Source of the DNA: Chloroflexota bacterium
Lineage (GTDB): Bacteria; Chloroflexota; Anaerolineae; Anaerolineales; Villigracilaceae
Length of the DNA stretch: 64,000 nt
NCBI GenBank assembly: GCA_021787595.1
Contig: JAJYLQ010000016.1
Span: forward strand, 1 to 64,000
Reading direction: 5' to 3'
Within the stretch, counting starts at the first letter, position 1. Each line of letters begins with the position of its first letter. Positions 1 to 3,458 of this stretch are shown piece after piece. Both the position numbers and the translations under genes were made by a program. Below the pieces are notes generated by a model that was not told the DNA's origin, searched no databases, and saw only the letters and a program-made list of their open reading frames with translations.

Positions 1-69
1 TCAAAGCGGCCATTTCAAAATGCCTGGAGGAAACTACCACAAAGCACAAATCCGATCTCGATTCTTTGC

Positions 70-279
70 TTACCTTGCGTTTTCAACTCTTTCAAAAAGC
101 GCAATTTGTGACCGTGTAAGGTATAGTTCGGCTTGTACATCGGCTTGGTGAATTTCCAGCTTTTCCAGAGTGACCTGGCTGTTCTGGCCTGCCTGAGGCG
201 ATGCGGCGCTTGCCTGGTTCAACGCAATTGCCGTAATGACCAAGACAACTGCGCCGAGGATGAGAAACCGTTTGATCAT
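70..279 (-). CDS. small exported protein, unknown function
   Basis: A 69-residue protein starting MIKRFLILGAVVLVITAIAL, which reads as a signal peptide or single membrane anchor with a likely cleavage after the ASA segment, followed by a short hydrophilic part with an amphipathic look. The start at 279 is preferred over the longer upstream extension because AAGGAG lies 5 nt before this ATG. Its start overlaps the stop of the preceding DUF2690 gene as ATGA, so translation is probably coupled. It is the last gene of a four-gene exported-protein operon. I recognise no family. Confidence 0.6.
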   Translation of the reverse strand: MIKRFLILGAVVLVITAIALNQASAASPQAGQNSQVTLEKLEIHQADVQAELYLTRSQIALFERVENAR

Positions 280-752
280 AGTAACTCCTTTGAGTGTATT
301 TGCATTAGATGTGGAACGTGGATCACACACAAGCACTGGTCGAGCTCAACATTATAGTTTCCATAGGACGATCCCTTGTAGCCCCGCGTGCAGACTGTGC
401 CGCTGCCATCCCACATGTTGTCCCATACCCACATATAGACTTGGTCGCCATCGTAGGTGTAGACCCCTACCGTCTCCGCTGCCAGCCAAGTGTAGGAGGG
501 ATACTCTGTGCGCGACCAGTTGGCAACGCAACCTGGCGAATACATGTTTCGATTCACCATGGTTCCGTCTGAACCATAATGCCAGACTGCAGTGTAAGCA
601 TCGTTCCAGCATGTTGTCCCTTGCGGATCCACCCAGTTACATCCCGAACCAGTGCAGGTGGCTGCAAAAGCCGTGCTGGTTGGAAAGAAGGTGCCAGTTA
701 ATACCAATAAAATGGACAATAAAACGGCGATGTGTAGTACATTCTTTTTCAT
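276..752 (-). CDS. exported DUF2690 family protein
   Basis: 158 residues with a clear signal peptide (hydrophobic residues about 8-30, ending in AFAA) followed by a Cys-rich secreted domain. The mature N-terminus has the pattern C-x3-G-C-x3-DP-x4-C-x2-DA, which fits the DUF2690 family, known mainly from actinobacterial secreted proteins; aromatic residues and further Cys pairs follow. GGAGG lies 7 nt upstream of the ATG. Function of the family is unknown to me. It is the third gene of a minus-strand operon (2131 down to 70) and overlaps the next gene by ATGA. A related DUF2690 protein is encoded at 1670-2131. Confidence 0.75.
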   Translation of the reverse strand: MKKNVLHIAVLLSILLVLTGTFFPTSTAFAATCTGSGCNWVDPQGTTCWNDAYTAVWHYGSDGTMVNRNMYSPGCVANWSRTEYPSYTWLAAETVGVYTYDGDQVYMWVWDNMWDGSGTVCTRGYKGSSYGNYNVELDQCLCVIHVPHLMQIHSKELL

Positions 753-885
753 TATGCCTCCTATTCTCGAGAAAATGGTTTACTTATTTTTATTCTTACC
801 TTCTTTTCAAACATACTCTGTCAAATGTGCCCTTTAACCTCCTTTCCGCAACCAGCCGTATATTAGCGCCTGACACGACCAACGG

Positions 886-911
886 GCGCAAAATCGCTGG
901 CGATTTTGTGC
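886..911. repeat. short palindrome between two operon genes
   Basis: Two 12-nt arms (886-897 and 900-911, core AAAATCGC/GCGATTTT, one G-T wobble) around a 2-nt loop, in the 166-bp gap between the exported gene ending at 919 and the DUF2690 gene starting at 752. No T-tract follows on the minus strand, so a terminator is unlikely. An RNA hairpin tuning expression of the downstream genes, or a small copy of the AAATCTGGAGATTT repeat seen at 3286 and 24218, are both possible. Confidence 0.45.
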
Positions 912-918
912 TGTCCCC

Positions 919-1659
919 TCATTTGCTATTCAAGTCAAATATCCATGGCCCTTGCACAATGTCTAGAAACGCGTCGGAAGCAATGCTATTTGCTGTATGG
1001 TTATCCATTTCTGCAGGCTTGCTGGTAACGATAAAACCGCCTAATCCGGCACTTTGGGTACATTTGATTTTGATGTTCTGGTGCGCATTGTCGAGTCTCT
1101 TTTGAGCCTTTTCGCAGTCTGGTGCTTCAGAGGGGGGCGTGGCAATTCGTGAAACAACGATTTGTAGGTTTTCCAAGCTGGTGGATGGAAGCACGGGGAA
1201 TTTCAGATGATCGCAACGACCGGTATAGTTTCCATTTGCATCGGTTTTCAGATCGCCAATCATCCCCACGCTATACACAGGAATTGTCTCCCGCCCGTTA
1301 GAAAGCGTAATGTATTCAGGCGACATCCCCCCGATCATCCATTCCGGATCATTTGTAGGAAAGTCGTAGCAGATATCCGCTGTGAAATAGTCGCCGACAA
1401 TCACTGTTCCCAGCAGTTGCATTTTGACACCGTCTACTTGCTGGATCAGTGGATAAGCGACGCTGGGAGGAGGAAGCGTACTGATCGAAACGGCATTACG
1501 GTGTATGACTTCTGATCCCATGATTTGGGAAATAAGTTGGTTGGAGCTAGCGTGTGCCGTTCTCGGCTGTAAATACTGAGCTACAGCCTTCACAGCAATA
1601 AAGGATGCAGCAATCAACATAAGAGCCGTCCCTAAAAGAATCAGCAAATGCCTTTTCAT
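919..1659 (-). CDS. exported or membrane-anchored protein, unknown function
   Basis: 246 residues with an N-terminal hydrophobic segment (MKRHLLILLGTALMLIAASF) and a hydrophilic extracytoplasmic remainder with four Cys. The start at 1659 is supported by AAGGAG 6-7 nt upstream; the longer in-frame form would run into the preceding gene. No domain is recognised. It sits 10 bp after the first DUF2690 gene and before the second one, so its product probably works outside the membrane together with them. Confidence 0.65.
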   Translation of the reverse strand: MKRHLLILLGTALMLIAASFIAVKAVAQYLQPRTAHASSNQLISQIMGSEVIHRNAVSISTLPPPSVAYPLIQQVDGVKMQLLGTVIVGDYFTADICYDFPTNDPEWMIGGMSPEYITLSNGRETIPVYSVGMIGDLKTDANGNYTGRCDHLKFPVLPSTSLENLQIVVSRIATPPSEAPDCEKAQKRLDNAHQNIKIKCTQSAGLGGFIVTSKPAEMDNHTANSIASDAFLDIVQGPWIFDLNSK

Positions 1660-1669
1660 GATCTTCTCC

Positions 1670-2131
1670 TTATGGTACACAGGGCGATGAAACTGGCCCT
1701 GTGATGTAACTGCCACTCACATATCCGCAAGACGAGAAGGGTGAACCTGAATAGCGCTGTTGGGAGAATACTTTTTGGTTCGCCGCTATGGGCGCGCCGG
1801 ACGATACAGAGTAATAGTATGGAGAAACACTGAACCAGAAGGTCGCGTTGGCATAGAACGACCTGCCCTGTGAATCTGTGTTTGTGGTGCGCGTCCAATA
1901 TGTATAGCAATATGTCGAATGTCGCATTTCGAGGACGGAACTTGCCGGATATGCAATGTAAGTTGTGGTAGCCGGGGAATCGCACCCAACTGAATTTGGA
2001 AACTGGCCGTCACATGCTGTCCCTGAGCATGTTGCAAGTGCCCGGCTAACGAATCCGCCAATTGGAAAGCTTGTGAGGATCACCAACAATATTGTTAAGA
2101 TTAACACAGTCAAATACTTGAATTTGGACAT
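1670..2131 (-). CDS. exported DUF2690 family protein
   Basis: 153 residues: signal peptide (residues about 6-33, ending SRALA) followed by the Cys-patterned start CSGTACDGQFPNSVGC typical of DUF2690, then an aromatic- and Ser/Tyr-rich domain. Start at 2131 is set by GGAGGG 5-6 nt upstream. It is the first gene of the minus-strand exported operon. It differs from its paralogue at 276-752 in length and in the second half, so they are probably not redundant. Function unknown. Confidence 0.75.
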   Translation of the reverse strand: MSKFKYLTVLILTILLVILTSFPIGGFVSRALATCSGTACDGQFPNSVGCDSPATTTYIAYPASSVLEMRHSTYCYTYWTRTTNTDSQGRSFYANATFWFSVSPYYYSVSSGAPIAANQKVFSQQRYSGSPFSSCGYVSGSYITGPVSSPCVP

Positions 2132-2698: not shown

Positions 2699-3088
2699 CT
2701 AGCTGGCGGCCTCCTTCTGGTACGCCAGCGTTGCCAGAACGTCCTTGAAGCGCTTGCCCGGCGTAAAGATCACACGGGCATCCGTGATGTTGGCGGCGGT
2801 CACATCAGCGGCATTCTCCGCGCCTTCGCTCGAAATGCTGATACGGAACGTGCCGAACTCGCCCAGCTCCGCGGTTTTCCCCTCTGCCAGTTGGTCCGGC
2901 ACAACGGTCAGGAACGCTTCGAGCATCGCCATCATGTCCGCGGTGCTGAGGGTGGACATGCGGGCAATTTGCTTAGCAGGGCTGTTGGTGTCGGCGCGTC
3001 CATCGCGCTTGGCCGCGGCATAATACTTCGGCGCAGCGGTCTGGTCGCGCGGGTCCTTGCGTGGGACGACAGTGAACTTGACGGTCAT
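2699..3088 (-). CDS. HU-like (HU-HIG type) DNA-binding protein
   Basis: 129 residues starting MTVKFTVVPRKDPRDQ. It has the features of the extended histone-like family best known from Bacteroidota: short N-terminal strand, PKYYA segment, helix pair with TADMMAMLEAFLTVVPDQLAEG, then GEFGTFRISIS and the arm-and-return segment VIFTPGKRFKD. These correspond to the HU fold with its DNA-binding beta-arm. GAGGAG lies upstream of the chosen ATG. The gene stands alone. It probably acts as a nucleoid protein. Confidence 0.75.
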   Translation of the reverse strand: MTVKFTVVPRKDPRDQTAAPKYYAAAKRDGRADTNSPAKQIARMSTLSTADMMAMLEAFLTVVPDQLAEGKTAELGEFGTFRISISSEGAENAADVTAANITDARVIFTPGKRFKDVLATLAYQKEAAS

Positions 3089-3324: not shown

Positions 3325-3412
3325 ATACTGTTGGCGAAATCGAGAAATTGCGCTTGTATAACTGTTTCCAGCCGCACATTTACAGGCGAAAAATGAATTC
3401 GCCAACAGTATC
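3324..3412. repeat. 89-bp element with perfect 15-bp inverted ends
   Basis: Arms at 3324-3338 (GATACTGTTGGCGAA) and 3398-3412 are exact reverse complements and enclose 59 bp. A second palindrome, GTCAAATT-GGC-AATTTGAC, follows at 3430-3448. Together these fill most of the 370-bp gene-free gap 3089-3458. The structure resembles a tiny non-autonomous element; a similar-sized element with TTCGCCA in its arms is at 47207-47294. Confidence 0.6.
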
Positions 3413-3458
3413 ATACTTTGCGTGCTCCCGTCAAATTGGCAATTTGACCTACATCGCC

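What the first reader, a model, noticed from the sequence alone, without database searches (positions are those of the whole stretch)
70..2131. Operon of four small exported proteins including two DUF2690 proteins
Four consecutive minus-strand genes each have a signal or anchor, good ribosome binding sites and tight spacing (ATGA overlap, 10-bp gap). Two are DUF2690, a family I know mostly from actinobacteria and with no known function; the others match nothing I recognise. The operon sits behind a palindromic array. It could be a surface or secreted effector module and is one of the least explained loci here.
Basis: partly seen in the sequence, partly recalled or inferred. Interest (0 to 1): 0.55.

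Follow-up and report, generated by a model that had tools for sequence, protein, structure and literature searches.

The report
Paired exported proteins, second copy broken
The locus is one complete pair of genes for two exported proteins that stay together in many related bacteria, followed by a second, decayed copy of such a pair that a transposon has cut through; what the pair does is still unknown.

Summary
The four reading frames exist, but they are not one intact four-gene operon. P4 (DUF2690-like, secreted) and P3 (anchored, no known family) form a complete two-gene unit. P2 is a second DUF2690-like gene whose 3' end is out of frame relative to its nearest relative. P1 is a stump: window 1-127 is the end of an IS630-type transposon, identical at three other contig ends, and supplies P1's last 18 codons. 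The rest of that second array probably lies on contig C12, followed by an ECF sigma factor. Among relatives, an intact module-type DUF2690 gene is directly followed by a P3 gene in 24 of 24 loci; 12 stand-alone DUF2690 copies have no P3. Ten of the 24 have a NarL-type response regulator upstream. The two proteins co-diverge (Mantel r 0.78). The paired units are GC-poor against their neighbours in 19 of 19 loci examined; neither gene alone shows this. I read this as a mobile, signal-controlled pair acting at the cell surface, with P3 the anchored partner of the secreted DUF2690-like protein. The complex and the function are inferred, not shown.

The parts
1670..2131 (-). P4: small secreted DUF2690-like protein, 153 aa, invariant cysteines; first gene of the intact pair
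   Evidence: translation; Pfam DUF2690 21.4 bits, just below cut-off 23; 57% identical relative in G021; seven invariant columns, six of them Cys
919..1659 (-). P3: exported, N-terminally anchored protein, 246 aa, two predicted domains (Ig-like beta-sandwich about 70-174; helix-strand-strand-helix-strand 182-244); partner of P4
   Evidence: translation; no Pfam/NCBIfam family; family in 28 of 61 genomes searched; conserved C97, C149, C182, C200, W107 and GPWxF; AlphaFold2 mean pLDDT 66.5
276..752 (-). P2: second DUF2690-like gene, 3' end out of frame relative to its nearest relative
   Evidence: translation; DUF2690 13.7 bits; 71% identity over 114 residues to L085 191-553 in G025; DNA alignment; pN below pS
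70..279 (-). P1: stump of a gene (probably the N-terminal part of a P3-family protein) running into the transposon end; last 18 codons are transposon sequence
   Evidence: position after P2 matches P3a after DUF2690 in G025 (L085); sequence similarity to P3a itself is weak (score 38, 5 of 500 shuffles as high)
1..127 (+). End of an IS630-type element (C-terminus of its transposase, terminal inverted repeat about 95-125, TA at the junction); cut by the contig end
   Evidence: identical 125-127 bp at contig ends C19, C16, C4; NF033545 IS630 transposase 18.6 bits on the last part; tblastn to IS630 transposases on plasmids; junction sequences
753..918 (-). Gap between the intact pair and the decayed pair, with a small hairpin at 886-911
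   Evidence: essentially unique in the genome
2503..2609 (.). Palindromic array upstream of P4; neighbour, not shown to belong to the module
   Evidence: no second copy in the genome apart from its own reverse match and a 25-bp stretch on C17

Best explanation
P4-P3 is an accessory, probably horizontally mobile two-gene module of Anaerolineales that makes a surface pair: a small secreted, disulfide-stabilised DUF2690-like protein and a membrane-anchored partner (P3) with an Ig-like domain that holds or covers it outside the cell. The genes are co-expressed, in many relatives under a NarL-type response regulator encoded just upstream (missing here). P2-P1 is a second module of another subtype, now decayed: P2 has an out-of-frame 3' end and its P3 partner is cut by an IS630-type insertion. 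Shown: the gene pair, its conserved adjacency, co-divergence, odd composition, and the IS end. Inferred: export and anchoring (from sequence), physical contact between the two proteins, surface function, control by the response regulator, horizontal movement, and that P1 is the stump of a P3 gene continued on contig C12.
For: Adjacency: 24 of 24 intact module-type DUF2690 genes have a P3 gene downstream on the same strand with a gap of at most 139 bp; the 10 loci found independently by the Pfam DUF2690 model above its cut-off in 101 genomes are all among them (10 of 10). Co-divergence of the two proteins over 24 pairs, r 0.78, 0 of 5000 permutations as high; of the six modules that share a genome with another module, all six have the same nearest relative for both proteins, and it lies in another genome. 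Accessory nature: module GC3 below the neighbours' median in 19 of 19 loci examined, mean -0.21, against +0.02 for P3-only and +0.01 for DUF2690-only controls (10 loci each); 11 of 24 modules within 1 kb of a contig end, 2.05 expected. Regulation: response regulator within 2.5 kb upstream in 10 of 24, with receiver and LuxR-type DNA-binding domains in those scanned. Second module. P3 model: N-terminal helix, then beta-sandwich and alpha/beta domain; best solved match 3fbq, Z 9.2.
Against: No complex was modelled or measured. 14 of 24 modules have no response regulator in the sequence held (4 of those have under 400 bases upstream), and the window has none. P3 also exists without DUF2690 as a vertically kept lipoprotein, so P3's basic role need not be DUF2690. 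The P4 model is poor (pLDDT 52.2) and was not searched. Joining of C32 with C12 is not shown: the two contigs end in different repeats and about 40 codons are missing between the halves.
Confidence: 0.45

Rival explanations
1. Antagonism: the DUF2690-like protein is a secreted antibacterial protein and P3 its surface-anchored neutralising (immunity) partner; tandem P3 copies are extra immunity genes and orphan P3 genes protect against neighbours.
For: Small, disulfide-rich secreted protein followed by an anchored partner in 24 of 24; several diverged subtypes per genome and a GC-poor, accessory setting; one DUF2690 followed by up to four P3 genes (G097) or three (G025).
Against: No toxin family matches; P3-only copies sit in a fixed place in ten relatives, unlike orphan immunity genes; DUF2690 occurs alone, without any P3, in 12 copies; nothing shows toxicity.
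Confidence: 0.22
2. Sensing: P3 and the DUF2690-like protein are extracytoplasmic input parts of a signalling system that feeds the neighbouring response regulator or, for the second array, the ECF sigma and anti-sigma factors.
For: Response regulator adjacent in 10 of 24; contig C12 carries P3b, P3c, then an ECF sigma factor and a large membrane protein with a weak DUF4179 match and a beta-propeller.
Against: P3 has almost no cytoplasmic part, no kinase gene was among the upstream neighbours scanned (others by eye), and only one array was seen with the ECF pair.
Confidence: 0.15
3. Intact four-protein secreted effector operon, as first proposed.
For: Four same-strand frames with good ribosome-binding sites.
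Against: P1 ends in transposon sequence and has no homologue in the loci searched; P2's 3' end is out of frame with its relative; 166-bp gap between P3 and P2.
Confidence: 0.03
4. No shared function: two unrelated small exported genes kept adjacent only by common descent.
For: Each gene exists without the other in part of the relatives.
Against: Adjacency in 24 of 24 across several families of the class, with joint unusual composition and multiple subtypes.
Confidence: 0.12

Closest known systems
DUF2690 (Pfam PF10901), e.g. Bacillus subtilis YjfA (recalled as a member) and Streptomyces secreted proteins
   Same: Same N-terminal cysteine pattern and small secreted size; P4's relatives score above the Pfam cut-off; a Streptomyces plasmid protein scores 51.5 bits.
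   Different: The stand-alone copies in the same class have no P3 and no response regulator next to them; P4 and P2 fall below the cut-off themselves.
Ig-like extracellular domains of unknown function, nearest solved chain 3fbq (Bacillus anthracis), also 3uc2, 3cfu (YjhA), 1lmi (MPT63)
   Same: P3's N-terminal domain has a similar beta-sandwich in the model (Z 9.2, 7.5, 6.8, 6.2).
   Different: No sequence similarity; Z values other than the first are within the usual background stated; the P3 family has an extra cysteine-bearing alpha/beta domain.
IS630 family insertion sequences
   Same: Transposase C-terminus and TA junction.
   Different: Only one end is in the window; the element was not read whole.
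Two-component response regulators of the NarL/LuxR type
   Same: Receiver plus GerE domain in the upstream gene of relatives.
   Different: None in the window, and no partner kinase gene next to it in the loci looked at.

Membership tests
DUF2690 (PF10901) | Score at or above the curated cut-off of 23 bits | tested here: not met
   P4 21.4 bits, P2 13.7 bits; so both are called DUF2690-like, not members
DUF2690 (PF10901) | Clear homology to proteins that do reach the cut-off | tested here: met
   P4 57% identical to the G021 protein that scores 26.8 bits; P2 71% identical to the G025 protein that reaches 23.2 with its neighbours in the frame
IS630 family (window 1-127) | Transposase of the family | tested here: inconclusive
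   fragment only: NF033545 at 18.6 bits, E 0.001, against a cut-off of 100 meant for whole proteins; 40-61% identity to plasmid proteins, 7 of 11 annotated as IS630-type at the matched place
IS630 family (window 1-127) | TA at the insertion junction | tested here: met
   4 of 4 copies read GGTATA at the junction and then diverge
IS630 family (window 1-127) | DDE catalytic residues | not testable with these tools
   the catalytic part lies beyond the contig end
Bacteriocin or toxin with immunity protein | Toxicity neutralised by the partner | not testable with these tools
   no experiment possible; no toxin family match
DUF4179 / anti-sigma ectodomain family (for P3) | Pfam match above cut-off | tested here: not met
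   only 2 of 20 P3 relatives match DUF4179 at all, best E 0.041; P0003 itself has no match
Ig-like fold (P3 N-terminal domain) | Two-sheet beta-sandwich | tested here: inconclusive
   model of moderate confidence, Z 9.2 to 3fbq, others near background

The most novel reading that the evidence does not exclude
A mobile, regulator-linked polymorphic system of the Anaerolineales in which an anchored partner family (P3) is diversified together with small secreted DUF2690-like proteins, with arrays of one secreted protein and up to four partners, used in interactions between cells; P3 would be a new family of dedicated binding or immunity partners.
Probability: 0.2. Interest if true: 0.65.

Novelty: new variant of a known kind. 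Interest (0 to 1): 0.4.

Why it matters
DUF2690 has no known function, and this gives it a constant genetic partner (a family, P3, that Pfam and NCBIfam do not hold), a frequent regulator and an accessory habit in one bacterial class. That turns an orphan domain into a testable two-protein question: does P3 bind the DUF2690-like protein, and what does losing either do? It also warns that two of the four genes at the given coordinates are remains, not parts.

Tried and rejected
Four-gene operon: rejected because of the transposon end and the out-of-frame P2 tail. P1 as a new small-protein family: rejected, no homologue among 3,013 frames of the neighbourhoods searched. P1 as a P3 remnant by sequence alone: weak (profile score 1.2 bits; 5 of 500 shuffles as high); kept only as an inference from position.

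Sequence search of the PDB with P3, P4 and their alignments gave nothing credible. Foldseek with the P3 model gave no match at E 0.001 or better. The P4 model was too poor to search. One DUF2690 protein of the stand-alone kind gave no match in plasmids or phages; P4 gave two plasmid records, of which the Streptomyces one was read and the Kitasatospora one has no annotation. Literature: DUF2690 and PF10901 each give one paper, a fungal secretome table (search listings; passage seen). YjfA is named among sporulation-associated extracellular proteins (passage, PMC10986503), in sporulation gene lists (passages, PMC3097244) and as biofilm-expressed (passage, PMC10661151). None of these passages describes a P3-like partner. 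One combined search for Anaerolineae found no paper; one on ECF factors in Chloroflexi was seen as a listing only.

The G029 copy is split over two contig ends (three rows) and P2 has no P3; both are outside the 24. One search took 19 of the 24 loci (left out: G054, G025, G162 and the two named records L126, L127). One search counts 24 modules including P2-P1 and G029 and not the two named records; it uses rounded genome sizes, and modules truncated by contig ends raise the true expectation somewhat. One of the six comparisons (P3 against G021) was misaligned by a wrong coordinate and is not used. The neighbours are long open frames chosen by script, not annotated genes.

Full report
What is there. 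The window begins at the first base of contig C32 of a 4.08 Mb, 63-contig genome. Named records with the same module are Anaerolineales or Chloroflexi. On the minus strand lie P4 (1670-2131), P3 (919-1659), P2 (276-752) and P1 (70-279), each behind a good ribosome-binding site. N-terminal export signals or anchors are judged by eye, helped by the P3 model, which starts with a long helix. Against Pfam, P4 is just under the DUF2690 cut-off, P2 well under it, and P3 and P1 match nothing credible.

The end of the contig is a transposon. Window 1-127 occurs with 100% identity at three other contig ends of the same genome, and its outer part (about 95-126) recurs at 81-96% identity in 38 further places at E 0.047 or better, many of them as facing pairs; three that I printed bound elements of roughly 190 bp. 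The + strand of window 1-120 encodes the C-terminus of an IS630-type transposase, and all four copies share GGTATA at the junction and differ after it. The last 18 codons of P1 are therefore transposon sequence. P1 is a stump.

The second pair. P2 is 71% identical over 114 residues to a DUF2690-like protein in G025. There the order is DUF2690, P3a, P3b, P3c. P2 follows that protein closely until near its 3' end, where a one-base length difference changes the frame, so that P2 reads on through what is the intergenic stretch in G025 and ends across the start of P1. The end of contig C12 of the same genome carries the C-terminal part of a P3a (local alignment score 229, best of 500 shuffles 46), then P3b and P3c in the G025 order (44%, 44% and 35% identity), then an ECF sigma factor and a large membrane protein with a beta-propeller. 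P1 is at the place of the N-terminal part of P3a. I infer, without proof, that C32 and C12 hold the two sides of one broken array; the two contigs end in different repeats and roughly 40 codons are in neither.

The intact pair is conserved. The P3 family was found in 28 of 61 genomes and P4 relatives in 17 of the 61. In the table, 24 intact module-type DUF2690 genes all have a P3 gene next downstream on the same strand. The ten loci that the Pfam model alone finds above its cut-off in 101 genomes are all in this set. Twelve other DUF2690 copies, in ten genomes of other families of the class, have no P3 and no response regulator; their sequences are printed. In a sample of 298 genomes of the class, P3 was found in 16 and DUF2690-like proteins in 19; only the best few candidates per genome were scored there, so these are lower bounds.

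Regulators and extra parts. A response regulator gene lies within 2.5 kb upstream on the same strand in 10 of the 24 (in one of them only the DNA-binding part); those scanned have receiver and LuxR-type domains. The upstream neighbours scanned are ordinary genes, none a kinase. In G021 and in one named record the pair is followed by a further exported protein and then by a small exported protein, each related between the two loci (E 3.9e-5 and 3.6e-12). In G097 one DUF2690-like gene is followed by four P3 genes, in G025 by three.

The pair behaves as a unit. Distances between DUF2690-like proteins and between their P3 partners correlate (r 0.78 over 24 pairs, none of 5000 permutations as high), and where one genome has two modules they belong to different subtypes. 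GC at third codon positions is below the neighbours' median in all 19 loci examined, by 0.21 on average, and below every neighbour in 14. Controls do not show this: ten P3-only lipoproteins +0.02, ten DUF2690-only genes +0.01; seven module response regulators -0.11. Eleven of 24 modules lie within 1 kb of a contig end where about two are expected, which fits repeats or strain variation next to them. Shared descent alone would explain the correlation, but not the composition.

Structure. With only five sequences allowed, AlphaFold2 gave P3 a mean pLDDT of 66.5: an N-terminal helix, a beta-sandwich (about 70-174) and a helix-strand-strand-helix-strand domain (182-244). Four cysteines and GPWxF are conserved. 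The best solved match is 3fbq at Z 9.2; the following ones are at the level that unrelated models reach. The P4 model is unreliable.

How it probably works. Both proteins are exported; P3 stays in the membrane facing out; the DUF2690-like protein is released and, I propose, held by P3's Ig-like domain. The regulator switches the pair on. Whether the pair protects, attaches, senses or attacks is open; composition, subtypes and partner arrays lean towards interaction with other cells, while the P3-only lipoprotein in a fixed place argues that P3 began with another job. All of this paragraph is inference.

Against known things. DUF2690 is known only as a domain without function; YjfA of B. subtilis, which I recall as a member (its control genome is one of four that ring), is a secreted, sporulation- and biofilm-linked protein (passages). 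No paper found describes the pair. I rate it a new variant of a known kind: an accessory exported pair under signal control, with a new partner family.

Noticed in passing
window 95-127; L107, L112, L113 around 1490-1724: A family of roughly 190-bp elements with inverted ends like the IS630-type end and TA at the junctions, in many places of the genome: probably miniature elements moved by that transposase.
   Followed up: partly
L115 7686-7809 (C12 end), L119-L124: A second, different repeat end shared by six contigs (C12, C18, C44, C34, C30, C26); element not identified.
   Followed up: partly
L044 4213-6997 (contig C12): ECF sigma factor gene followed by a 753-aa membrane protein with an anti-sigma-like layout, weak DUF4179 match and a C-terminal beta-propeller, directly behind three P3-family genes.
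   Followed up: partly
window 2699-3088: HU-like protein matching the HU-HIG model (95 bits), a family I recall mainly from Bacteroidetes; GC-rich, unlike the pair.
   Followed up: no
L030, L032-L036, L038, L040-L042: P3-only lipoproteins sit in a fixed place between an epimerase-like gene and what looks by eye like tyrosyl-tRNA synthetase in most of ten relatives (one is at a contig start).
   Followed up: partly
L085 1262-2485, L044 8152-9261: P3 domain fused behind an Nbr1-type Ig domain (N_BRCA1_IG, 65-66 bits) in lipoproteins of these arrays.
   Followed up: no
L087 5913-7013, L088 5234-6358: DUF2690-like proteins of 366-374 aa with an extra exported N-terminal part, still followed by P3.
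   Followed up: no
L028 8261-8839; L031 5174-5659: Other small aromatic-rich exported proteins near P3 genes, matching no family; possibly alternative secreted partners.
   Followed up: no
window about 3361-3420 and L121 about 92-223: A stretch of the window resembles sequence beside a repeat end on contig C44, so it may be a dispersed repeat too.
   Followed up: no
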